From assembly GCA_948144175.1 (NCBI GenBank), contig CANXME010000542.1:310001-374000 (forward strand): DNA of 64,000 bases. The letters run 5' to 3'. Below, one piece after another: positions 7,867-55,558 of the stretch. The stretch is from Closterium sp. NIES-65. Lineage: Eukaryota; Streptophyta; Zygnematophyceae; Desmidiales; Closteriaceae. The notes below the pieces were generated by a model that was not told where the DNA came from, did not search any database, and saw only the letters and a program-made list of their open reading frames with translations. The translations under genes were made by a program, and so were the position numbers. Position 1 is the first letter of the stretch. Each line of letters starts with the position of its first letter.

Positions 7867-8042
7867 TGTCAGAATTTTATTCTCGAGCCTGTAGTGGGGT
7901 GCTCTATAGCGAGTACAACCCATCTAGGGTTTGCTATATGTATCCTCACTTCTACTAGTAAAACCTCTCTTTGCCTAAACTTTCACTTGCCTACCTAGGA
8001 CTTACCTAGCTATGGCTCCCAACTCTACCTACTACTCTCACA
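7867..8042 (+). repeat. 5' LTR of J1
   Basis: TG...CA ends and 176 bp. It contains GTAGTGGGGTGCTCTATAG and AGTACAACCC, motifs shared with Family I LTRs. Confidence 0.9.
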
Positions 8043-8064
8043 TGGTTTCAGAGCGCTCACGCTC
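8043..8064 (+). promoter_or_regulatory. primer site and adjacent hairpin, J1
   Basis: TGGTTTCAGAGC at 8043-8054 matches the usual initiator tRNA-Met complement at 11 of 12 bases. GAGCG-CTCA-CGCTC at 8051-8064 can fold into a 5-bp stem with a 4-base loop. Confidence 0.75.
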
Positions 8065-8168
8065 CTGGCCTGTGGGCCCTACTGCTGCTTCCGCTGCCCT
8101 ACGGGCGCGCGACCTGCGCGGAAGTTTTCTGCCCGCCGTGCGCCCCGAGGCGCGCGGCGGTTTCCTGC

Positions 8169-9152: not shown

Positions 9153-9328
9153 TGTCAGAATGTTATTCTCTAGCCTGTAGTGGGGTGCTCTATAGCAAGT
9201 ACAACCCATCTAGGGTTTGCTATATGTATCCTCATTGCTGCTAGTGAAACCCCTCTTTGCTTAAACTTTCACTTGCCTACCTAGGACTTACCTAGCTATG
9301 GCTCCCAACTCTACCTACTACTCTCACA
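9153..9328 (+). repeat. 3' LTR of J1
   Basis: 176 bp, the partner of 7867-8042, ending ACTCTCACA and followed by the target duplication GTAAT. Confidence 0.9.
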
Positions 9329-9699: not shown

Positions 9700-10504
9700 T
9701 GTTGGTGCAACCCTACGGTTTGCACTCGGCTTGTTTTCCGTGTGCGTGCATGTGTGTGTATGGAATGGTATGAGGGCATGGGATAATATATATTTCATGC
9801 TTATTATTATGTGTGAATGTTGAGTCATGATGTCGAGTGTGTGTGTCGAGTCAATAGCGAGATATCGCTAGACGCGTGTTACGCGGTCGTTTGTGTCTCG
9901 CGCACGGTTTCCATTTTGTCCTGTGTCGAACGTTCGGCGTGTCGCAGGTGTGTGCAGAAGATCCATCAAGAACTCAAGGATGAGTTTGTGATGAAGAGCC
10001 CGAGCCTTTGTGTCAAGCCTCGAGTGATTTCGAAGCTCGCCAAAAGGGTGCACCTCAAGATATTGAAGATAGTAACATTACTTTGTGTAGTGTAACATTT
10101 CACTTGGTGTACGCCCTAGTGAAGGGTAGTTTCGAGACCCTTCGTGGTTGGGGACAGTGTGGCACTGTTCCACATCACTGTACCTCGGCTCTTGGGGTTT
10201 GTAGGAGCTGGGAGTCATTCCCAACTCGTAACTCTTCCTAACTCTTTCTATCTTGTGTACTAAGACTATGTTGCTGCCATAGTGCCGTTCGTTCAAACCG
10301 ACGCTGTGTCGTCATTTCTAAATGAAAGCGTGCGATTTAAATTGTTTATTGTAGGCGACGTTAAGACACTCCAGATCCAAGTTGAATGAAGTCATTTGGA
10401 GTTGTGAGCAGATCGCTATGAGCGTTTGAAGCTGCTGTGCAGAAATCCGACTGTGCACTCTATCTTTCGTTTTAGGCACATTGGAGCCTACTGAGACTAT
10501 AACA
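9700..10504 (+). repeat. 5' LTR of N1
   Basis: 805 bp, starting TGTTGGTGCAACCC and ending GACTATAACA. It carries GGATAATATATATTTCATGC at about 9780, an AT-rich, TATA-like stretch. It may hold the promoter; the transcription start cannot be fixed from sequence. Confidence 0.93.
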
Positions 10505-10506
10505 AG

Positions 10507-10521
10507 TGGTGTCAGAGCCCC
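10507..10521 (+). promoter_or_regulatory. primer-binding site of N1
   Basis: TGGTGTCAGAGCCCC starts two bases after the 5' LTR and resembles the complement of initiator tRNA-Met (TGGTATCAGAGC). Confidence 0.8.
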
Positions 10522-10538
10522 TTGGAGCAGTTTCGACA

Positions 10539-13500
10539 ATGGCTGGACCTGAGGAAAGGGGTGGCAGAGGTGCTGGTGGCAGTGGAGAAGCCCAAGCTCA
10601 AGGCCAACCCCGTGACTCAGCCATGGCGCCCGTGCAACCAAGTGTTGGCCCATCTAGGGACGAGCCTAGAGTGTTTGGCCTTGACAAGTTCAACGGTGAC
10701 AACTTTGCTGAGTGGTCCTTCAGAATGGAGAACGTGTTTGATCCCTATGACCTGCTGGAGGTGATGGAAGGAACGGAAAAGCGCCCCGAGAACGACCCGG
10801 AGAAGAGCCCGTGGGTGCGGAAGAGCGCACAAGGCTACCTCCTACTAGGGCAAGCGTTGGGGAGCAGCCAGATCTGTCACATCAAGCCATTCCAGCGTGA
10901 ACCAGAGAAGGGACCAAAGGCATGGGCTGCTCTCAAGGGTGTACACGCTCCTGCAACAGCGGCGGTAGCTGTGGTGTTGGAACGGCAAATGGCGACGTTA
11001 CGAATTGAAGAGGATGAAGCGGTTGAAGAAGGGGTGCAGAAATTCTTCGACTTGTTGACTCGGCTTGAGGGAGCTGATTTGAACAATAGTGAGCTCCAAA
11101 AGAAGACCAAGTTGCTGGCCCTACTCCTTGAATCATGGTCCTCGCTCATCATCAACCTGAATCGCGACATGCCCCACCTCTCGCTTGAAGACGTGAAGCG
11201 AGCTATCCTTCAAGAGGATTTCCGCCGCCGTGAGTTGGCAAGTGCGGATGGCGCAGGGGCAGCGAGCATCGGCCGTGGATATGGCCCTGGAAGAGGCAGA
11301 GGACGAGGGGGAGGAAGGTTTGGTGGCAGCAACTTCAGTGGAGGCCGCGGGAGTAGCAGCGATGGCAAGAGCTACGGTCGCGGTCGCGGCCGATTTGACG
11401 GTGAATGTCACTATTGCCACAAGACCGGGCACATGTGGCGCGATTGCTTCAAACTCCCTGAAGGATGGACCCCTGCTCAAGGCCAGGAGGGTAGAGGAGC
11501 AGGAGGAGGGAGAGGAAGAGGCCGTGGAGGCCGTGGCGGTCGCGGTGGCGGAGCTGCAAACATGACGAGCGGAGACAATGACAAGGACCCGAGCAACGAT
11601 CGGTTCCCGGGTGTATTCTACTTCGTGTCGACGCAAGTACCGACTGGTCCAGAGAAGGATGAAGGCTTTGAGGAGCCAGTAGCTGTGGGGAAGGTTACCC
11701 TACACCCCCTGGACTATTGGGTGATCGATAGTGGCGCTACCTATAGCATGACACCTCGCCCAGACTTGCTCACCGAACTCGAACCGTCACCAGTGAAGCA
11801 TGTCACATTGGCTTTGGGGCAGCGAGCGGAGGTGAAAGGCATGGGCAAGGCCATGTTCAAGGGTGCTGATGGGAAGATGGTGGGCCTCAAGAACGTGCTT
11901 TGGGTGCCCAGCCTTGCTGCGAACCTGATCTCCGTGCGGCGGTTGGCAAAGGCTGGCATGGACACGAACTCGAAGGGAGCCAAGACCTACACCGCAAGGC
12001 TTGGCGATCAAATTCTTTGGGACCTTCATGAGGAGAGAGATGTCTACAACGAGATGTGGCAGATCCCTGTGGTCCCAATGTCTAAGGAGAGGCAAGTGGC
12101 AGCAAGCGTCAGCACCAAAGGTAGAGCGATTGGTAGCGGCGATTGCGCGGACGGTCGCGCTAAGGAGAAGGAGCCCAAGAAGTGCAAACCTGGAGGGACC
12201 AGCAAGCTTGGTGAACCTATGGAGAGAGGTGCAGCAGCCAAGGAGCAGCAAAAAGGTGAGAAGAACCCCGAGGCAGCAGCGGAGGAGGACTACGGAGAGA
12301 GTATGTGGGGCGCTATTGCGAGCGCGGCATTCTCCAATCCAACTTCGGCTACGGGGGAGTGTGATTGGCTCACCTTGCATCGGCGCATGGGGCATGTGGC
12401 CCTGCCCATCTTGCAGCAGCTAGCAAAGAATGAGATGGTTGCTGGCATACGTGTGAAGGGAGAGCCCAATGAAGTACTTGGCTGCCCGACGTGCATGCAA
12501 GCCAAGTTGACCCGATTCCCGTTCTCTAGTTCGGAGGCGACGGCTAAGGCACCGCTTGATGAGGTGGTGATGGACGTGGTGGGCCCCCTGAAGCTTGGAG
12601 CTGCTGGAGCTCAGTATTTTCTCACCATTGTCGACGTCTACACCCGCATCACTTGGGTGTATGTGCTGGCCAAGAAGAGCGACGTGGCTGAAACGTTGAA
12701 GACGGATTGGTTCCCGATGGTGGAGCGGCAACAAGACCGTCTAGTCAAGTCAATCCGCACCGATCAAGGGGGAGAGTTCCTGAGCAAGGAGTTTGGGTTG
12801 TGGCTGAAGAAGAATGGTATTCGGCACTCCCTCACCATGCCATAATCCCCTGCAATGAACGGCATCGCCGAGCGAGCGAACCGCACAATCACGGAGGCGG
12901 CACGCGGGTTGCTCATTGAAGCCGAGCTACCCGACTATTTCTGGCCTGATGCGGTGCGGAGCGCGTGTGTGGCCAAGAACAGAGCCTTGACTCATGTGGG
13001 AGCAGACAAATGGGTGCCCTATGTGGAGTGGCTAGGAAGGAAGCCAAAGGTGGATATGCTTCGGGTGTTCGGGTGCATGTGCATGGCGCTCGTGCCTAAG
13101 CATCTTCGGCACAACAAGTTTGGTGCCAAGGCGGTGTGGGCCGTGCACTTGGGCATGGCTCAAAACAGCAAGGGATGGCTTCTTTGGGACCCATTCACCA
13201 AGAAGTTCTTGGTGAGCAGGGACTGCAAGTTCATGGAGAACTTCATGTACAAGGATTGGAAGGCGGAGAATGAGGCGAAGATAGGCGTGCGGTTTGGGGA
13301 AGTGAAGAGTTCCGGTTTGGAGCATGTGGAGCTGCCTTTGGAGCTGAGCAGCGGCAACACAACCACGAGACAATCCTCCCTTGTGAATGGGGGAGAGGAG
13401 GCCAATGATGCAGAGGAAGAAGAGGAGGAGGTGCAGCAAGTGAGCGAGCGTGCACCGTCACTCCCTACCCGTACTATGAGTGCTCCACGGATTCGAGCCA

Positions 13501-15230
13501 TACCGCAGCAGCACCAAGGCCTTCAAGTCCCTGCAGCTGAGGAGGAAGGAAGGGGGAAGAGGAGAGTTCAACCCCCTAATAGGCTGACTTATGATGCACT
13601 GGGAAAGCAGGGCAAGACAGCCCTGGCCGGAGCGGCAATGATGGTCGGAGACGACGAGGAGAGTGACTACGAGGAGTGTGCCTTCGCGTTCTTCTCTCCG
13701 GTGGAGATGCCGGGAGAACCAGCAACTCTCAAGGAGGCTTTGGAGAGTAGTGATGCTGAGGAGTGGAAGAAGGCCATGGAGAGTGAGCTGAAGAGCATCG
13801 AGGAGAATGACACGTTTGAATTGGTGGAGCTACCGGAGGGGCGTACGGCGATAACGTCCAAGTGGCTCTTCAAAATCAAGTCGGATGCCGACGGCAAGAT
13901 CGAGCGCTACAAGTCTAGGCTTGTAGCCAAGGGGTACCAGAAAAAGGAGAAGGTGGACTTTAAGGAGCTGTCTGCCCCTGTGGTGAAGCCGACGACGCTG
14001 CGAACCCTATTCGCGGGAGCCGCCATCAAAGGATGGGTAGTAAAACAAATGGTCATCGTAACGGCATTCCTTAACGGCATCCTTGAGGAGGAGATCTTTA
14101 TGGCACAGCCAGAGGGGTTTGATGATGGTAGTGGCAGAGTGTGGAAGCTGAAGAAGGCCCTCTATGGGCTGAAGCAGGCCCCTAGGCAATGGTACATGAA
14201 GCTGCGCGAAGTGTTGGAGGAGATCGGCTTCACTCCCTCAACGGCCGATCACTCCTTGTTCATGCTTGGCGAGGGGGAGCAGAGGAGCTTCATGGTGGTT
14301 TTTGTGGATGACATTCTCATATTATCACCCTCCTCTGACCTTGTGAAGGAGGTGATGCTGGAGCTGCATGACAAGTTCAAGTGCAAGTCCCTTGGTGACG
14401 TGAACTTCTACCTTGGGCTCCACATCGAACGAGACGTGGAGAAGCGGAGCATGCGAGTGCACCAACAGAAGTACCTGGAGGCATTGGCCGCCAACTTCGG
14501 CCAGAGTGAAGGTCATGTGGCTACTCCCTTTCCCTCTGGGTTCAAGTGTGTGAAGGGGCCAGAGGAGGAGAGCGTTGGAGAAGAAGAGAGGCGTCGTTTT
14601 CACTCGTTGGTGGGCAGCCTCATGTATGCGGCGGTAAACACCCGACCGGGCGTCGCGTTTGCTACCGGGCAGCTGGCTAGGGTTGTGCAATGCCCTAATG
14701 AGGAGTAGGTAGCAGCTGGAATGAGGGTGGCCAAGTATCTTGGCCAAACACCAACCGTTGGGCTGCAATACTCGGCGGCGGCACAAAGGCGCCAAAAGGG
14801 CGCGGATGGTGTTGAACCCGGGCGTTTGTTCCTCACCGCCTACTCGGATGCTTCATATGCATCGGAACCAGAGGACATGACAAGTGTGGGAGGCTTTATA
14901 TGCTGTGTTGGTGGAGGCCCAACTGCTTGGGAGAGCAAGAAGCAGGTTGACCAAGCTTTGAGCTCGGTTGAGTCCGAGTACATGGCACTCTTCCGTGCCG
15001 TACGGGAGATTGTGTGGCAGCGGCGTTTGTTGGCTGAATTGGGGGAGGAGCAGCAAGGACCTACCTCACTCTACTCTGATAGCCAGGGTGCCATTGCTCT
15101 TGCTAAGAACCCTGTGTTGCATGGACTCACAAAGCACATGAGGGTAAAGTGGCATTGGACGAGGAGCATGGTGACCGCGGGTGAAGTTGAGTTGCGGTAC
15201 GTGAAGACCACGGGGCAGCCGGCTGAATGA
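10539..15230 (+). pseudogene. gag-pol of N1 with two in-frame stops
   Basis: ATG at 10539 opens a frame starting MAGPEERGG and following the leader directly. Domains in order: UBN2-type Gag (about 10660-11250), glycine/arginine-rich stretch, zinc knuckle CHYCHKTGHMWRDC (about 11406-11448), protease WVIDSGATYSM (about 11717), GAG-pre-integrase (about 12360-12520), integrase core with MDVVGPL (about 12570) and RTDQGGEF (about 12755), RVT_2 (about 13720-14520) with VVFVDDILIL (about 14300), and RNase H (about 14840-15200) with YSDASY, ESEYMAL and SDSQGAIAL. TAA at 12843-12845 and TAG at 14706-14708 interrupt an otherwise continuous frame. The RT motif that normally reads M-D-V-x-TAFLNG reads MVIVTAFLNG, so a catalytic Asp is gone. 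Both defects make this copy non-functional. Confidence 0.95.
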
Positions 15231-15339
15231 TGACTAAGAGGCTGGTGGAGCAGCAGCATTGGAAGTGTTGCAAGCTGGCTGGGATGGCTCTGAACTGAGA
15301 GAGCAACATATCCTAAGGCCAACAATCCGAGGGGGTGTT
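15231..15339 (+). other. N1 3' untranslated segment with polypurine tract
   Basis: After the final TGA a short non-coding stretch ends in the purine-rich GAGGGGGTG just before the 3' LTR, the expected plus-strand primer. Confidence 0.6.
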
Positions 15340-16144
15340 TGTTGGTGCAACCCTACGGTTTGCACTCGGCTTGTTGTCTGTGTGCGTGCATGTGTGTGTA
15401 TGGAATGGTATGAGGGCATGGGATAATATGTATTTCATGCTTATAATTGTGTGTGAATGTTGAGTCATGATGTCGAGTGTGTGTGTCGAGTCAATAGCGA
15501 GATATCGCTAGACGCGTGTTACGCGGTCATTTGTGTCTCGCGCGCAGTTTTTATTTTGTCATGTGTCGAACGTTCGGCGTGTCGCAGGTGTGTGCAGAAG
15601 ACCCATCAAGAACTCAAGGATGAGTTTGTGATGAAGAGCCCGAGCCTTTGTGTCAAGCCTCGAGTGATTTCGAAGCTCGCCAAAAGGGTGCACCTCAAGA
15701 TATTGAAGATAGTAACATTACTTTGTGTAGTGTAACATTTCATTTGGTGTAGGCCCTAGTGAAGGGTAGTTTCGAGACCCTTCGTGGTTGGGGACAGTGT
15801 GGCACTGTTCCACATCATTGTACCTCGGCTCTTGGGGTTTGTAGGAGCTGGGAGTCATTCCCAACTCGTAACTCTTCCTAACTCTTTCTATCTTATGTTC
15901 TAAGACTATGTTGCTACCATAGTGCCATTCGTTCAAACAAACGCTGTGTCGTCATTTCTAAATGAATGCGTGCGATTCAAATTGCTTATTGTAGGCGACG
16001 TTAAGGCGCTCCAGATCCAAGTTGAATAAAGTCATTTCGAGTTGTGAGCAGATCGCTATGAACGTTTGAAGCTGCTGTGCAGAAATCCGACTGTGCACTC
16101 TATCTTTTGTTTTAGGCACATTGGAGCCTACTATGACTATAACA
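15340..16144 (+). repeat. 3' LTR of N1
   Basis: 805 bp, same length as the 5' LTR with scattered substitutions and no large indel, followed by AGAGA. Confidence 0.95.
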
Positions 16145-16149
16145 AGAGA

Positions 16150-17917: not shown

Positions 17918-17947
17918 GGTCGTGGAATAGGACCTCATCTGAAACCA
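17918..17947 (-). promoter_or_regulatory. primer site and adjacent hairpin, element A
   Basis: On the minus strand TGGTTTCAGATG abuts the 5' LTR, followed by GGTC-CTATTCCAC-GACC (17918-17934), a 4-bp stem with a 9-base loop. This is the weakest member of the hairpin set. Confidence 0.6.
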
Positions 17948-23154: not shown

Positions 23155-23183
23155 TGGTATAGAGCGGGTTCCCTAGTGGGACC
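23155..23183 (+). promoter_or_regulatory. primer site and hairpin of C5
   Basis: TGGTATAGAGCGGG follows the LTR. GTTCCC-TAGT-GGGACC (23168-23183) forms the post-primer hairpin with one mismatch. Confidence 0.65.
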
Positions 23184-23984
23184 GTTTCTTCCTAAGGGCC
23201 CACCTTCGATTTTTTTTTTTAGCCTGCCCGAAGCGCGGTTCGCGTCCTGCCCTAAAATTTCGCGCCCCCCCCCCCCCCCTTAGTGGCCTGTCCCTTAACG
23301 GCCCCTTAGCGGCCCCCCTTCGCGGCCCCTTCACGGCCCCTGTCGCGACCCCTTAGCGGCCCCTCGCGACCCCTCTTAAGGCCCTTCGCGGCCTCCCCTT
23401 CGCGGCCCTTTGCGGCCCCCTCACGGCCCTTCGCGGCCCCTTTGCGGCCCTTCGCGGCCCCCTCACGGCCCTTCGCGGCCTCATCGCGACCCTTCGCGGC
23501 CCCCCTCTCGGCCCTTCGCGGCCTCTCCGCGGCCCTTCGCGGCCCTTCGCGGCCCCTTCACGGCCCCTCTGCGGCCCCTTCGCGGCTCTTCGCGGCCCCT
23601 CCGCGGCTCTTTGTGGCCCTGCCGCCCCGTCGTCGCCGCCCCAGCAGCAGCTGCCCTCGCGCCTGCTGCTGCTGCCACTTCCGCCACGGCCGTTCGCCGC
23701 CGCCGCTGCTGCCGTGACTGCCGCCGCCGCTCCTGCCGTGACAACTGCCGCTGCTGCTGCTGAGACAACCGCCGCGGCCACTGTCATGACAGCCGCCGCC
23801 GCCGAGTCGCGGCCCTGCTCTGCCGTCCTGTCGCGGCCCTGATCCTGCCGGCGCACCTCGGCCCTGCCCCACCACTTGCGGGCTTCTACCCACCCGCCCC
23901 TAGTAAGCGCACCGCCGAGTCGCGCCCCTCCTGCTGCTCCCACTGCTAACCTGCTTCTGCTACTAGCCTGCTGCTGCTGCTCTC
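23184..23984 (+). repeat. GC-rich repeat leader of C5
   Basis: A GGGCCCACC box at about 23198, a poly-C run at about 23265-23279, then about 350 bases of short CTTCGCGGCCCC-type repeats (about 23280-23610) and CTGCTGCTGCC-type triplet-rich sequence. The long open frames seen on both strands here are compositional. Confidence 0.8.
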
Positions 23985-35719: not shown

Positions 35720-36779
35720 TGGACGAGTAGTGCAAACAGTAGGGGGGGGGGGAGGGCCGTGCAGTGGGAGAAGGCACTGTGCTCACCAGACAGGGCAGCT
35801 CTGACTGTCCAGCTGCTGGGCGGCTCAGGTGCAAAGCGGCTCGGCGGCAGGGCGGCTCGGCGGCAGGGCGGCTCGGCGCCCGGGCGGCTCGGCCCTTGGG
35901 CGGCTCGGAGGCAGGGCGGCTCGGCTCCAGGGCGGCTCGGCTGCAGGGCGGCTCGGCTCCCGGGCGGCTCTGCTGCTGGGTGGCTCTCGTGCAGGGCGGG
36001 GCGGCTGTCGTAGGTAGGGCGGAGGGTGAGCCGCAGGTAGGGCGGCAGGTGCGCTGCAGGTAGGGCGGCGGGTGGGGCCGCAGGTAGAGCGGCGGGTGGG
36101 CCGCTGGTATGGCGGCGGGTGAGCCGCAGTTAGGGCGGCGGGTGCGCCGCAGGTAGGTCGGCGGGTGGCCGTAGGTAGGGCGGCGAGTGCGCCGCAGGTA
36201 GGTCGGCGGGTGGCCGCAGGTAGGGCGGCGGGTAGGGCCGCAGGTAGGTCGGCGGGTCGGCCGCTAGTAGGGCGGCGGGTCGGCCGTGAGTAGGGCGGTG
36301 ACGGGCCGTAGGTAGGGCGGCGACGGGCCGTAGGTAAGGGCGGTGACGGGCCGTAGGTAAGGGCGGCGAAAGGCCGTAGGTAGGGCGGAGACGGGCCGTA
36401 GGTAGGGCGGCGACGGGCCGTAGGTAAGGGCGGCGACGAGCCGGTGCAAGGGCGGCGCGAAGCCGCGGGTAAGGGCGGCGACAGGCCGGGGCGGCTCGAA
36501 GCCGCAGGTAGAGGCGGCGCGAAGCCGCGGGAAGGGCGGCGACGGGCCTGGGCGGCGCGAAGCCGCAGGTAAGGGCGGCGCGAAGCCGCCAGTAAGGGCG
36601 GCGCGAAGCCACGGGTAAGGGCGGCAACGAGCCGGGATAAGAGCAGCGCGCAGCAGCCGCTAGGGCGGCTCGACGCGACCGTAAGGGCGGCGCGACGGGC
36701 CGCTAGGTGCGACTCGACGGGGCCGCTAAAAAAAAAGGTAGGCGCGACTCGAGGCGCGCTTCGGTGGGCCCAAGGAACA
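35720..36779 (-). repeat. GC-rich repeat leader of K
   Basis: Two arrays are visible on the plus strand: GGCGGCTCGGCnGCAGG-type units (about 35820-35990) and GTAGGGCGGCGGGTnnGCCGCAG or GACGGGCC-type units (about 36000-36640). No coding potential is supported, although long frames occur. Confidence 0.85.
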
Positions 36780-36809
36780 GTCCCTAGGAGGGGACCTGCT
36801 CTGATTCCA
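36780..36809 (-). promoter_or_regulatory. primer site and hairpin of K
   Basis: Minus strand TGGAATCAGAGCAGG next to the LTR, then GTCCC-CTCCTA-GGGAC (36780-36795), a perfect 5-bp stem whose sequence differs from the GTTCCC/GGGAAC of M and G. Confidence 0.8.
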
Positions 36810-38540: not shown

Positions 38541-38740
38541 GATGGGGGGCAACGCGCGGGTCCCCGGGGGCTCCACAACGGGCGACAGGGGGCGACGCGC
38601 GGTTCAATGGGGCAGGAAACCGCCACGCGCCCCGAGCGCGCGGCGGGATGAAAAATCACCGCGCGCGGAGCGCGTGGTAGGCAGGGGACAGCAGGAAACC
38701 GCAGCGGAAGCATTGGGCGGGACCACCCACAGGATCCACC

Positions 38741-38767
38741 CAGGTGGGTCGACCTGCTCTAATAGCA
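38741..38767 (-). promoter_or_regulatory. primer site and hairpin of J2
   Basis: Minus strand TGCTATTAGAGCAGG next to the LTR (a Met-type site with two changes), overlapping CAGGT-CGACCC-ACCTG (38741-38756), a perfect 5-bp stem. Confidence 0.7.
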
Positions 38768-45600: not shown

Positions 45601-46096
45601 GGTGGAGTGCGGGCCCCCGCACTCCTCACCAGCGCGGTCGCCGGTACGGAGATCGTAGGTGCAGGGACCAATACCCCCACCGCGCTAACGCGCAGCGTAC
45701 CACTCACGAAGCTGCTGAGGGGACAAGGTCTCGCGGCTGCGCTGCTGCTGCTGGCGTGGACCACCACCGGAGCCACTCCTCTGCGTTGAGCCGCGACCAG
45801 GTTGCAGGGGCCTAGATGGGGCCGAAGAGGGGCCGCATGGGGTCTAAACGGGGCGGCGACGGGGCCGTAAGGGGCCGGAAAGGGCGCCGCGAGGGGCCGC
45901 AAGGGGCCTCGCGAGGGCCATAAGGGCGACGCGAGGGGCCGTAAGGGGCCATAAGGGCAGCGCGAGGGGCCGTAAGGACGGCGCGAGGGGCCGTAGAGGG
46001 CGGCGCGAAGGTAGGGAGGGCACACAGAGGGCGACTCGGGCAGGAGTGAAGCGCGCTCCGGGCAGAAAAAAAATAAAGTGGTGGGCCCTAGGTAGC
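45600..46096 (-). repeat. knuckle remnant and GC-rich leader of G
   Basis: Minus strand YDLRTGDRAGEECGGPHSTQRYF (about 45660-45590) is the decayed wide-spaced knuckle. Beyond it lie repeats of GGGGCCGTAAGGGGC type (about 45800-46010). The Gag N-terminus is missing. Confidence 0.75.
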
Positions 46097-46126
46097 GTTC
46101 CCACTAGGGAACCTGCTCTTATACCA
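46097..46126 (-). promoter_or_regulatory. primer site and hairpin of G
   Basis: Minus strand TGGTATAAGAGCAGG next to the LTR, then GTTCCC-TAGT-GGGAAC (46097-46112), a perfect 6-bp stem with a 4-base loop, and a GGGCCCACC box at about 46080-46090. Confidence 0.8.
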
Positions 46127-50163: not shown

Positions 50164-50911
50164 TGGCCAAGGGCAATCCATCACCCGCATCAACGCCCTG
50201 GGAGCCACCATCCATCCATGAGCGCTGACGGCTCCAGCTATGCCAGAAGGCCTTTTTTGTCCACCAGGACCGTACTCTACACGTGGAGCTTCAAACCCAA
50301 GCTCCTGGCTCAAAATGTGCAAATCTGGATGTACTGTGACTTTGCATTACCTTTCCCTAATGACGGTTCACTTCACGCGAAGGTACAGTATTACAACGAA
50401 TTGCTGTCGTCTTGAATTGCAACTTGTCACATGCGAACCAGCTCGATACTTGCTCCTTCAGCCAACTCAACAGTCTAGGAAGTGCATGGCAACGGACTCA
50501 GTCACTGTCAGTCGTCTTCTAAGCCAGCTCAACAATGTCATAATGTTTCATGGCGAAAAGGCAGGGGCATATTTCAATTGCTGTGGAAATATGATGTACC
50601 GGTTAAAAGAGGCGGGAACATCCCTAACAATATATCTGTGACCATTATCCTCGCTAGCTTGGGTCCAAAGTGGTGTCATTGCAAGTCAGTCCTTTGCACT
50701 CAAGGTGTAATCTCCCAAACCATGCTTTGCGTTACTCTCCTCGTCAAACAGCAAGAGATTGACATGTACAATAAGAGAGGCAACAAGAACGAGAACATTG
50801 CTTATTACAAGGGAAGTGTAGAAGCAACATCAGACAAAAGTAATATGTTCTGCAGGTAGTGCAAGAAGATGGGTCACACGATTAGAGAATGCCGATTGCG
50901 CAATGGAGCAG
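50164..50911 (+). pseudogene. gag of B2
   Basis: RINAL (about 50190) and MSADGSSYAR (about 50218) match RINAL and MSIDGSSYAR of B. Then TWSFKPKLLA, IWMYCDFALPFPNDGS and MATDSVTVSRLLSQL, each with stops. Zinc knuckle residues CKKMGHTIREC (about 50860-50892) follow a stop in place of the residue before CKK. Confidence 0.8.
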
Positions 50912-51510
<599 letters not shown>

Positions 51511-53870
51511 ATTTTGCGCAAAGGCAATCGGGGGTCGCACTGTACCAACAAGTCGCCGGACCACCGACACGCAACCAAACCGTATCTCCACCCGTCGTCT
51601 TCAGCACTTGACAAGATCCTGTGCGCATTCCTACAAAGAACAGCAATGGGAAAATCAAGGTTTCAACTTGTATGGTGTGTTGTGGACCACCGCAAATCAG
51701 CCGTCACTATCACTACTTCCGAAGCTGGGACAACATGTTTCGAGACCCACCAAGGGAGACAATGATCCAACTTATTACGAGCTGAGATTTGGGCAAATTC
51801 CATTTGACTAGGAAGTGCCACACTGGATCTCGGGGTCACCAGCTGCACGCGTCACATTAGACGATGAGGGATGGAGCAGTAAGCAAGACAATGACATGGA
51901 ATAGCACATCACACGGTTCATCGAAAACATTGCAAGAAAGAAGTACGGCATCAACAAGTGGTACTTGGACAGCTGCTGTGGTCAACACATGGTTACCTCC
52001 GGCCGCTTCATCCTCAACAGCGAAGAGATCATCAGCGACATGGCGGTCACTGTTGCGAACAATCAATCCATATGGCCAAAGATCCTTGAGAGATCTAGCT
52101 TGAGTTTAAGGACACAAACGTTTCAATTAATATCAGCGATGTGGTCGTGGTTTCGAGTCTTCGCTTCAATCTTCCCTCCGCCACCCAGCTGACGAAGTGT
52201 GGTGTCCAGCTTTAGTCACACAAGATGGAGATTCATTTTATCTACAAGGCCACCCTCCTCGGAAAGGCAAGAAGCGAAAATGGTGTGTTTAGCTTACCTT
52301 CGACTCACCTGGGAACATGGGCGACAGAGACCGTATCCTCGCCTTGAACCACCCGCACATCCCTCGCCGCCTGCAAGGACTTCTCCCTTTGAGATAGACT
52401 TGGAAAAACCAAGCACAGACACATGTCGTTCGCTGGCCATCCCCATTGCTTCAACATTGAATCTTGCAGATACAGGACTAGAAGCAGTTGAAGAAGTTGT
52501 TACAAGTACACGAGTATGGGGATAATGAATCTGGCGAAGAGTCGAGCAACCTATAGGTTGGGGCATGGCTACAGGTTGGGGCACAGTAGACGTCAAATGG
52601 CAATGCACAAAACAGGCTGGGGACCTCTTAAGGCAAGCCACTGACACCGAAGAAGGATGGGACGGCACAACTCAACATCCTGCAAACACCAAAGAACAAG
52701 AACCAGAGGTCACTGAGTCGCGCGAGAAGACATCATCGTCAACGTGTAAGAACATGCACCACAATTATCTCCTCCTAAAAAACAAATTATGCCCCAGTTT
52801 GGACATCACCTCATCCCGGTCAAAATCGACGGAAACATCTACTACGGTCTTGACATAATGGGAGCACCCATCAGTAACGTCGCCGACGAAGGCGTTGTCA
52901 TTTAGTACGAAGAAGATCGCGGTCCTAGCAAAGCTCCAACTCGCAACTACTCCATGTAACGACTGACATAAGAACCATCAGCAATTGTGACGATGTGTTT
53001 CGGGGAATGAGGCTCGAGAATCGTTGTAGCCATCCAAGTTCTTGTACCAAACCTACAAAAGAAACAAGTTCAGCGACATTAGAGACATTAGCTTAGGAGA
53101 AGGAAATGTACGATCGCATACGCAAATAGCGTCTGCCTGGAAGCGACGCTAGCGCTAAATGATTAGAGCCGCTGTACAAGGTCTACATCGACTTTTGTGT
53201 CTTACCGCTTGCGGACGGGGAGTACTATACTATCACCTTCGTCGACGCAGCCACCCAAATTGTTTGGGCCGCAAATGTCTCTAGTTGCAAACTCACCTTC
53301 AAATGCTTCTACATGTGGGTGAAAATGGCACTCACACAATTCAAGTGAAAGAATTTATAGGCGTTTCAGACATACAGAGCAGTAGAGTACGTCAGTAAGA
53401 TGTTTTGGAAGTTTTGTGTAGAGAAGGAGGATAAGAGGATGATCTCGCTACCCTACGCTCACAAGCAGCAAGGTTTGGCTGAAAGGACCAACAGGAGCCT
53501 CGCGACAAAAATGAGGGCCTTCACGAAGTAGTCAAATGTGCCAACCGTTTGTTGGCCCTACGCAATGGCCCATGCACAATATTCTTTCCTCGAAGGCCTT
53601 GCCCAACAACAACTCAACCTTCAAGGAGTGGATGGTACAGTACCGGCCCCACACTGCCCGAACAAGAAATTTTGAAGAACGAGCCAAATGGAGCATCCGC
53701 CTTGTCATTGAAAAGGTGTCACCATGCATGTAACATCCTTGACTTCACCACCCACCAAGTCACGCATTCACGTGACTTCATCTTCTACAAAAGGCTCACG
53801 CTGCCACTGTTCCGCCCACAATTCACTGCACAGCAAGCACCAAGCAACATTTATTAAGGGGGGCATAGTA
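51511..53870 (+). pseudogene. protease and integrase of B2
   Basis: KWYLDSCCGQHMVTSGRFILNS (about 51957-52020) matches the unusual DSC protease motif of B. Integrase remnants: VYIDFCVLPLADG (about 53180), ISLPYAHKQQGLAERTNRSLA (about 53440-53505), and VTHSRDFIFYKRLTLPLF (about 53755-53810). Many stops and frameshifts. RT is absent. Confidence 0.75.
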
Positions 53871-54809: not shown

Positions 54810-54839
54810 TGGTTTCAGCGCAGGTTCCCTAGTGGGAAC
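54810..54839 (+). promoter_or_regulatory. primer site and hairpin of M
   Basis: TGGTTTCAGCGCAGG (54810-54824), then GTTCCC-TAGT-GGGAAC (54824-54839), a perfect 6-bp stem with a 4-base loop. An AGGGCCCACC box follows at about 54846. Confidence 0.8.
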
Positions 54840-55558
54840 GTTTTTTTAGGGCCCACCACGATAGTTTTTTCTGCCCTGCCAGAAGCGCGCCTCGCGCCTG
54901 CCTCACCTGCGCCATCGCGCGCCCTGCCCTACTGCCGCCCATCGCGGCCCTGCCCTAACAGCCCGTCGCGGCCCTGACCTAGCCGCCCGTTGCGGCCCTG
55001 CCCTGTCGCTGCCCATCGCGGCCTGACCTAGCCGCCCGTGGCGGCCTGACCTTGCTGCCCGTCACGGCCCTGCCCTGCCACCACTCGTCGCGGCCCTGCC
55101 CTCAGCCGCTCGTCGCGGCCCTGCTCTACCGCTGCCCCGTCGCGGCCCTGCCCTGCAGCCGCATGGTCGCGGCCCTGCTCTACCACCGCCCCGACGCGGC
55201 CCTCCCCTGCAACCGCCTTGTCGCGGACCTGCCCTGCTGCCGCCCCGTTGCGGCTCTGCTATGCCGCTGCCTCGTTGCGGCCCTGCCCTACAGCCGCCCC
55301 ATTGCAGCCGTAACCTAACCGCCCGTCGCGGACCTGCCCTGCCCCTGGTAAGCGCCCGCCCTGCTAAGCGCCCGCCCTGCTAAACACGCCGCCGCGCCCG
55401 CATGCCAGCCGAGCCGCGCCACCCAGCCGAGCCGCGCCGCCGAGCCGAGCCGCGCCACCCAGTCGAGCCGGGCCGCCCTGCCAAGCCACGCCGCTCTGCT
55501 GGACCGTGGCGCCCTGCCCTACTGCGTTACTACTGCTCCTCTTGCTGCTACTGCCGCC
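54840..55558 (+). repeat. GC-rich repeat leader of M
   Basis: Repeats around CGTCGCGGCCCTGCCCT with CCGCC- and GCAGCCGC-type spacers (about 54910-55340), then GAGCCGCGCC units (about 55400-55480). It fills the space from primer site to ATG. Confidence 0.85.

What the first reader, a model, noticed from the sequence alone, without database searches (positions are those of the whole stretch)
54810..54860. Hairpin directly 3' of the primer site, pairing kept while sequence changes
Seen: M (54824-54839) and G (46097-46112) have GTTCCC-TAGT-GGGAAC; K (36780-36795) has GTCCC-CTCCTA-GGGAC; J1 (8051-8064) has GAGCG-CTCA-CGCTC; J2 (38741-38756) has CAGGT-CGACCC-ACCTG; A has GGTC/GACC (17918-17934); C5 (23168-23183) has one mismatch. 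Compensating differences between copies suggest selection on an RNA structure, perhaps for primer annealing, dimerisation or packaging. Non-autonomous J elements keep it too. A GGGCCCAC box follows in A, C5, K, G and M.
Basis: partly seen in the sequence, partly recalled or inferred. Interest (0 to 1): 0.75.

Follow-up and report, generated by a model that had tools for sequence, protein, structure and literature searches.

The report
Retrotransposon leader mirrors its primer tRNA
In thousands of jumping-gene copies of a green alga (by its closest protein matches, Closterium), the stretch after the primer site carries, in order, pieces of an antisense copy of the initiator tRNA that is predicted to prime their copying; the hairpin seen there likely evolved from one arm of that antisense tRNA, and the whole stretch would help to hold the primer.

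Summary
The hairpin is real, and its pairing is kept while sequence changes. In 84 distinct genomic leaders, 58 keep a perfect stem of 5 bp or more, against 6.4 expected. Halves taken from different copies pair less well than halves of one copy.

The larger result is what surrounds it. After the primer site the leader follows, in order, an antisense copy of the host's initiator tRNA-Met. The GGGCCCAC box is the antisense anticodon stem; J elements also carry the antisense D arm and variable region. One copy matches 45 of 50 bases ungapped from the CCA end through the anticodon. Another (L113) matches 30 of 34 through the hairpin; its stem differs by two G.U-to-C-G changes, its loop by two more.

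Genome-wide counts: 10,860 primer sites, 3,947 with the box, 1,503 with the antisense D arm.

Likely origin: reverse transcriptase read through the primer tRNA. Predicted function: extended primer docking as in yeast Ty1, but colinear and spanning most of the tRNA. The hairpin's own role is the least certain part. Primer annealing is favoured; dimerisation and packaging are untested. I call it a new variant of a known kind.

The parts
54810..54821 (+). M: primer binding site TGGTTTCAGCGC (antisense to tRNAiMet 3' end)
54824..54839 (+). M: hairpin GTTCCC-TAGT-GGGAAC, at the place of the antisense T arm/variable region
   Evidence: place by alignment to the antisense tRNA and comparison with L113 and L122
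54849..54860 (+). M: GGGCCCACCACG, 12 nt exact antisense of tRNAiMet nt 22-33 (5' strand of the anticodon stem, bases before it and start of the loop)
   Evidence: pairs with nt 22-33 in RNAcofold
46115..46126 (-). G: primer binding site
46097..46112 (-). G: hairpin GTTCCC-TAGT-GGGAAC
46078..46088 (-). G: antisense anticodon-stem box GGGCCCACCAC
36798..36809 (-). K: primer binding site
36780..36795 (-). K: hairpin GTCCC-CTCCTA-GGGAC
36763..36772 (-). K: antisense anticodon-stem box TGGGCCCACC
17936..17947 (-). A: primer binding site (degenerate, TGGTTTCAGATG)
17918..17934 (-). A: weak stem GGTC-CTATTCCAC-GACC
   Evidence: its 9-nt loop lies outside the range scored
17901..17908 (-). A: antisense anticodon-stem box GGGCCCAC
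23155..23165 (+). C5: primer binding site with one base missing (TGGTATAGAGC)
23168..23183 (+). C5: hairpin with one mismatch (4 bp perfect core)
23196..23204 (+). C5: antisense anticodon-stem box GGGCCCACC
7867..8042 (+). J1: 5' LTR (94.9% identical to 9153-9328); ends exactly at the primer site
8043..8054 (+). J1: primer binding site TGGTTTCAGAGC
8051..8064 (+). J1: hairpin GAGCG-CTCA-CGCTC, overlaps the primer site by 4 nt
8063..8079 (+). J1: TCCTGG + CCTGTGGG + CCC, antisense T stem, variable region and anticodon stem, colinear with short deletions
8087..8097 (+). J1: GCTTCCGCTGC, antisense D arm
9153..9328 (+). J1: 3' LTR
38756..38767 (-). J2: primer binding site (2 mismatches)
38741..38756 (-). 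J2: hairpin CAGGT-CGACCC-ACCTG
38725..38733 (-). J2: CCTGTGGGT, antisense variable region/anticodon stem 3' strand
38700..38711 (-). J2: GCTTCCGCTGCG, exact antisense D arm

Best explanation
The hairpin sits in a leader that carries, in order and starting at the primer site, pieces of an antisense copy of the host's initiator tRNA-Met; the copy was likely written when reverse transcriptase read through the primer tRNA, and it is predicted to serve as an extended docking site for that same primer. Shown: the antisense identity, its colinearity with the primer site, thousands of leaders with the box or D-arm block after the site, and the hairpin with partial covariation. Inferred: plus-strand synthesis occasionally passed the modified A58 of the primer and copied on into the tRNA, so the integrated leader gained an antisense tRNA. 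Inferred: the primer site grips the 3' acceptor strand, and the GGGCCCACC box grips the 5' strand of the anticodon stem. In J elements CCTGTGGG and GCTTCCGCTGC would add the anticodon 3' strand/variable region and the D arm. The antisense of T arm plus variable loop already contains an imperfect inverted repeat (AGGTTT...GGACCT, with two G.U pairs). In many leaders this repeat was strengthened into a stable hairpin. Inferred and least certain: the hairpin folds the T-arm section away, leaving the tRNA's own T arm free and bringing primer site and box next to each other.
For: ANTISENSE. All 7 window leaders match antisense tRNAiMet beyond the primer site (each p 0.0165 or less); summed score 165, against 93.4 +/- 5.9 and a maximum of 116 in 2000 dinucleotide shuffles. 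J1 and J2 are the two best colinear places among 127,864 anchors in the window. L121 is 45/50 ungapped from the CCA end through the antisense anticodon, and L122 runs to nt 14 with small gaps. L113 is 30/34 ungapped through the hairpin. POPULATION. Primer site: 10,860 copies (control 5). Site plus box: 3,947 (control 0). Site plus antisense D arm: 1,503 (control 0). Of 60 places taken by the primer site alone, 29 are box type and 6 J type; thinned, their scores beyond the site are 20.4 and 28.6, against about 13 shuffled. Intervals that the patterns did not constrain also score above shuffles: 0 of 2000 reach in each of two tests. HAIRPIN. 58 of 84 against 6.4, plus the half-swap test. DOCKING. 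RNAcofold with the primer site kept and the rest shuffled gave 0 of 200 for M, J1, J2, L109, L121 and L122 (the last two were found by their tRNA match); 1/200 for K and A; 2/200 for G. The minimum-energy fold of M keeps the hairpin and pairs the box with nt 22-33. USE. LTRs end exactly at the primer site in J1 and in L063, L067 and L088, whose LTR pairs are 99.2%, 100% and 94.3% identical. Precedent: tRNA contacts outside the PBS have a shown role in Ty1 (passages, PMC5454406), and synthesis past A58 occurs when m1A58 is lost (passages, PMC13191261).
Against: Hairpin role: in only 3 of the 10 antisense-type leaders folded with the tRNA (M, G, L109) does the minimum-energy fold keep the hairpin; in K, C5, A, J1, J2, L121 and L122 that section pairs with the tRNA instead. 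18 of 34 leaders with the D-arm block lack a 5-bp stem. Copies are related, so no test fully removes shared ancestry. The covariation is modest: two pairs carry double changes, and the count of such pairs is no higher than in shuffles (214/500). The half-swap result depends on the cut (1 to 146 of 20,000 reach it for the box set, 6 to 190 for the primer-site set). C5's docking energy is ordinary (20/200), and the energy of control E10507 is close to that of M in the 80-nt fold. E10507 also reaches p = 0.008 in the word-chain test, while M, G, K and A reach only 0.03-0.05 there. In Family I the match outside the box is short: 2.1% of 12,788 window stretches score as high as A or C5, and a place without a primer site (1461-1511) scores 29, above M and J1. 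In Ty1 and Ty3 the genomic PBS is not copied from the primer (passages, PMC5371799). Folding ignored tRNA modifications and tertiary structure. Nothing biochemical was tested.
Confidence: 0.66

Rival explanations
1. Fossil only: the antisense tRNA was written once by read-through and now decays neutrally; hairpin and box persist by common descent, not for primer docking.
For: Pieces are unequally kept; J1-type copies have lost the antisense anticodon loop; many D-arm-bearing leaders lack the hairpin (18 of 34).
Against: Stems keep pairing while letters change; an exact box follows the primer site in 3,947 copies although the 84 distinct printed spacers differ widely; spacing from primer site to box is 38-43 nt in 71 of 84 distinct leaders, antisense tRNA 42; J leaders with antisense tRNA sit in insertions with LTRs 94-100% identical.
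Confidence: 0.2
2. One reading: a hairpin for genome dimerisation or packaging, unrelated to the tRNA.
For: Covarying hairpin in the leader.
Against: L113 and L122 connect the hairpin base by base with the antisense T arm; it sits between two tRNA-complementary blocks at near-tRNA spacing.
Confidence: 0.09
3. Second primer site: the box is a half-tRNA primer site for a 5' tRNA half, as in copia, Ty5 or plant Osser/Bryco elements.
For: The box is antisense to the 5' strand of the anticodon arm, the region used by half-tRNA elements (PMC6317226, PMC10886601, passages).
Against: LTRs end exactly at the 3'-end primer site, not near the box, in J1 and in the 3 J copies with detected LTR pairs, so minus-strand DNA should start there; not traced for Family I.
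Confidence: 0.08
4. The box is a DNA-level promoter element: GGGCCCAC reads GTGGGCCC on the other strand, fitting the plant TCP-factor site (motif recalled; its spelling is counted in a paper listing).
For: Exact in thousands of leaders; lies just downstream of the primer site.
Against: Does not explain the colinear CCTGTGGG, GCTTCCGCTGC and T-arm matches, nor that many J boxes read GGGCCCGC or GGGCCCTAC.
Confidence: 0.07

Closest known systems
Ty1 extended primer interaction (PBS + Box 0, Box 1, Box 2.1)
   Same: Same primer (initiator tRNA-Met, 3' end) and extra leader boxes complementary to the tRNA body (passages, PMC5454406, PMC5371799)
   Different: Ty1 boxes are 6-7 nt against T or D hairpins; here blocks run in tRNA order at near-tRNA spacing, include the anticodon stem, and in L121 form a continuous 50-nt antisense tRNA with 5 mismatches
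HIV-1 and other retroviral primer contacts outside the PBS
   Same: Leader pairs with tRNA beyond the 18-nt PBS; many HIV strains and spumaviruses keep a complementary sequence just after the PBS that fits synthesis past A58 (passages, PMC13191261)
   Different: Different tRNA; the passage describes only the stretch next to the PBS
Half-tRNA primed Copia elements (Drosophila copia, Ty5, plant Osser, Bryco, part of Gymco-II)
   Same: Antisense to the anticodon arm of initiator tRNA-Met (passages, PMC6317226, PMC10886601, PMC5371799)
   Different: There that block is the primer site; here it lies about 40 nt downstream of a 3'-end primer site, which the LTR boundary of J copies marks as the one in use
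TRIM elements (for J)
   Same: Two short LTRs and a primer site; mobilised in trans (inferred)
   Different: 1.25-1.46 kb, longer than the 1 kb limit given in PMC10886601; leader carries antisense tRNA to the D arm

Membership tests
Ty1/copia LTR retrotransposons (Family I) | gag, integrase before RVT_2 reverse transcriptase | tested here: inconclusive
   Retrotran_gag_2, rve and RVT_2 in ORFs of the window (6 of 8 ORFs have a match), but the pol body belonging to each leader was not traced
Ty1/copia LTR retrotransposons (Family I and J) | PBS to initiator tRNA-Met adjoining the 5' LTR | tested here: met
   PBS. LTR end at the PBS shown for J1 and 3 of 6 J loci; not traced for Family I
Ty1-type extended primer interaction | leader blocks complementary to the body of the primer tRNA | tested here: met
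Ty1-type extended primer interaction | blocks needed for initiation of reverse transcription | not testable with these tools
   needs biochemistry; energy models only
Half-tRNA primed Copia | LTR ends next to the anticodon-arm complement | tested here: not met
   J1 and 3 J loci: LTR ends at the 3'-end PBS; Family I not tested
TRIM (J elements) | short LTR pair, PBS, no coding capacity, under about 1 kb | tested here: inconclusive
   LTR pairs 94-100% identical, elements 1.25-1.37 kb, J1 1.46 kb; size over the quoted limit; absence of genes not tested

The most novel reading that the evidence does not exclude
These leaders are written and refreshed by their own primer: the reverse transcriptase copies the initiator tRNA into the element, so one leader holds both a 3'-end primer site and, in register, the half-tRNA primer site used by copia and Ty5. 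That would be the missing intermediate by which Copia elements switch primer type, and the covarying hairpin would be the tRNA's T arm re-evolved as a cis RNA fold.
Probability: 0.25. Interest if true: 0.82.

Novelty: new variant of a known kind. Interest (0 to 1): 0.66.

Why it matters
Contacts between primer tRNA and leader outside the primer site are known in a few elements, as short boxes in the passages I read. Here thousands of natural copies follow the primer tRNA in order after its CCA complement, and intermediates lead from nearly intact antisense tRNA (L121) through L122 and L113 to the hairpin form. This makes the origin of extended primer sites, and of switches between whole-tRNA and half-tRNA priming, testable by comparative sequence and simple annealing assays.

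Tried and rejected
Hairpin as a chance stem: possible for single window copies, rejected for the set. A sense tRNA gene or SINE inserted beside the LTR: rejected, because the match is antisense, starts at the CCA complement, and the sense tRNA scores only 13-16 against the 7 leaders; ARAGORN and Rfam (gathering) find no tRNA in the window. Human and yeast initiator tRNAs (recalled) fit less well than the plant type in 6 of 7 leaders; J1 ties with yeast. Control leaders E10507 and X18622, the T-arm class and the 'other' class show no antisense tRNA by local score; E10507 did reach p = 0.008 in the word-chain test. RNAalifold on a MAFFT alignment of 80 mixed leaders predicted no structure, probably because stems lie in two registers; so stems were tested per sequence, by half-swapping and per register. 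The first half-swap test kept only leaders that already had stems and was replaced by one without that choice. Viral contigs: no match for the pattern and no confirmed relative of the pol protein. A count of leaders that keep the antisense anticodon loop was asked 6 times and never answered. Paper searches for prior art listed no title or abstract start on antisense-tRNA leaders; they cover open-licence papers only.

Full report
SETTING. The window lies in an 874-Mb assembly. The 120 listed protein matches (of 3,904) of one integrase ORF in the window are all from Closterium strains. ORFs carry Copia-type domains (gag, rve, RVT_2).

OBSERVATION. Taken one by one, the stems are hardly above chance (M 0.014, G 0.013, K 0.09, J1 0.09, J2 0.10, C5 0.25, A 0.999; loops of 3-8 nt only, so A's stem with its 9-nt loop was not scored). 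M and G are the same sequence, and the J1 stem overlaps the primer site, so the window alone does not prove compensation.

WHOLE GENOME. The primer site CATGGTNTCAGAGC occurs 10,860 times (reversed control 5). TGGTNTCAGAGC plus GGGCCCAC within 10-40 nt occurs 3,947 times (control 0). Of the 100 strings that one search printed, 84 are distinct. 58 of these 84 hold a perfect stem of 5 bp or more, against a mean of 6.4 and a maximum of 13 over 300 letter shuffles. To test covariation without choosing leaders by their stems, each leader was cut at a fixed distance from the primer site and 3' halves were re-dealt among copies more than 4 differences apart. Own halves pair better: with the cut at 9 nt, 30 copies, mean 4.43 bp against 3.75, and 14 of 20,000 re-dealings reach it. 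Cuts at 7, 8 and 10 nt gave 146, 11 and 1 of 20,000. In the 60 places taken by the primer site alone, cuts at 8, 9 and 10 nt gave 190, 6 and 21 of 20,000. On a gap-free set of 33 distinct 18-mers, the pair at columns 7-13 is U-A in 13 and C-G in 12. Cells with double change number 13 against 6.7 shuffled (0 of 500 reach), but the number of pairs with such changes is not unusual (214 of 500). The second register gives 13 against 8.4 (7 of 500) and 337 of 500. These 33 were picked from 65 distinct 18-mers: 16 fitted neither register, and 16 more that fitted one were left out as not aligned with the main Family I form.

WHAT THE LEADER IS. Read against the reverse complement of initiator tRNA-Met, the leaders are colinear with it from the CCA complement onwards (for A and G the best local piece alone is short). 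Beyond the 12-nt primer site the seven window leaders score 165 in sum, against 93.4 +/- 5.9 in dinucleotide shuffles (maximum 116 of 2000). M has GGGCCCACCACG, 12 nt exact, at offset 39 (tRNA offset 42). J1 has TCCTGG, CCTGTGGG and GCTTCCGCTGC in order. J2 has CCTGGG, CCTGTGGGT and GCTTCCGCTGCG in order. As colinear word chains, J1 and J2 are the two best places among 127,864 anchors of the window; M, G, K and A reach only p 0.03-0.05 by that measure, C5 0.001, and the control E10507 0.008. The plain local scan also gives 29 at 1461-1511, which has no primer site, and 2.1% of 12,788 stretches score as high as A or C5.

SAMPLE TAKEN BY THE PRIMER SITE ALONE. 60 of the 100 places listed were read (the first 50 and the last 10). 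By letters, 29 are box type, 6 J type, 20 belong to a T-arm class and 5 are other (the box and J classes are defined by box or J letters). Thinned for similarity, scores beyond the primer site are J 28.6 (5 copies; shuffled 13.3), box 20.4 (19; 13.1), T-arm class 12.8 (4; 12.5) and other 13.0 (5; 12.3). Stretches that the search patterns left free also match: the interval between primer site and box in 27 thinned copies (12.81 against 9.60; 0 of 2000), and the middle of 12 thinned D-arm-bearing leaders (20.5 against 10.7; 0 of 2000). The antisense D-arm word follows the primer site in 1,503 copies (control 0).

INTERMEDIATES. L121 carries 45 of 50 ungapped bases of antisense tRNA from the CCA end through the anticodon loop and stem. 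L122 continues to tRNA nt 14 with small gaps. Both were found by searching with the tRNA. L113, from the primer-site sample and with the box, is 30 of 34 ungapped through the hairpin when read against the host's second tRNA type. There the antisense tRNA reads AGGTTT...GGACCT, an inverted repeat with two G.U pairs; L113 reads AGGTCC...GGACCT and differs at two loop bases besides. So the hairpin is the antisense T-arm/variable region, strengthened. The direction of change is inferred.

DOCKING MODEL. In RNAcofold, M pairs its primer site with the tRNA 3' end, keeps its hairpin and pairs box bases 40-51 with tRNA nt 22-33; G and L109 also keep the hairpin. K, C5, A, J1, J2, L121 and L122 instead pair the hairpin section with the tRNA in the minimum-energy fold. 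So docking is predicted throughout, but a folded hairpin in the complex is predicted for 3 of 10 only; the hairpin may be the fold of the free leader, opened by the tRNA. With the primer site kept and the rest shuffled, interaction energies as low as observed appear in 0/200 (M, J1, J2, L109, L121, L122), 1/200 (K, A), 2/200 (G), 20/200 (C5), 106/200 (E10507) and 49/200 (X18622). The primer site abuts the LTR in J1 and in 3 of 6 J loci with a detected LTR pair: L063 99.2%, L067 100%, L088 94.3% identical (the other three J loci held are 714 nt long, too short to reach a second LTR at that spacing). So in J the 3'-end site is the one in use, and antisense leaders are compatible with recent transposition. 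D-arm-bearing leaders without a stem (18 of 34) show that the hairpin is not required everywhere.

COMPARISON. [quoted passage not shown] Ty3 has a bipartite site, and in Ty1/Ty3 the genomic PBS is not copied from the primer (passages of PMC5371799), which speaks against routine rewriting if Closterium elements behave like them. Plus-strand synthesis in HIV-1 normally stops at m1A58 and goes further when it is missing; many HIV strains keep a complementary sequence just after the PBS (passages of PMC13191261). Plant Osser, Bryco and some Gymco-II elements use half-tRNA-Met (passages of PMC6317226). Fungal Copia and Helenus families use either the 3' end or the anticodon loop of tRNA-iMet (abstract and passages of PMC10886601). 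I found no report of a leader antisense to nearly the whole primer tRNA (searches; listings of open-licence papers only).

VERDICT. Observation confirmed. The primer-annealing reading is favoured on new grounds; dimerisation and packaging are untested. I hold the antisense identity as near certain. Origin by read-through and function in docking are inferences, together 0.66 (lowered from 0.70 on checking, because most model complexes do not keep the hairpin).

Noticed in passing
L061, L064, L077, L079, L086, L089, L092, L093, L098, L100, L102, L104, L110, L117 (own genome; 14 of the 20 T-arm-class places, those with a detected LTR pair): A very small LTR element: 12 of 14 are 342-378 nt, two are 538 and 606; LTR of 116-147 nt, interior 64-93 nt in the 12. 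The class makes up 20 of 60 primer-site places. The LTR end (TGGTCTAGTGG) and the interior just after the primer site (GGGTTCGAATCCC) look like A and B boxes of a tRNA gene split by the LTR boundary (motifs recalled); ARAGORN and Rfam call no tRNA in L061, L074, L077, L087, L089, L093. Compare Helenus/TRIMp3 in PMC10886601, where the tRNA-like part lies inside the LTR.
   Followed up: partly
L123, L124, L125 (own genome): At least two initiator tRNA types differ by a compensated T-stem pair; L113 and L122 fit the second type better.
   Followed up: partly
window 9700-16146: A Copia element with 807-nt LTRs 96% identical has a primer site with one mismatch (10507) but no antisense tRNA by local score; a stop-to-stop open frame starts at 10503, over the primer site.
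   Followed up: partly
window 50778-51620: Long low-complexity repeat run (9-nt steps) across overlapping open frames.
   Followed up: no
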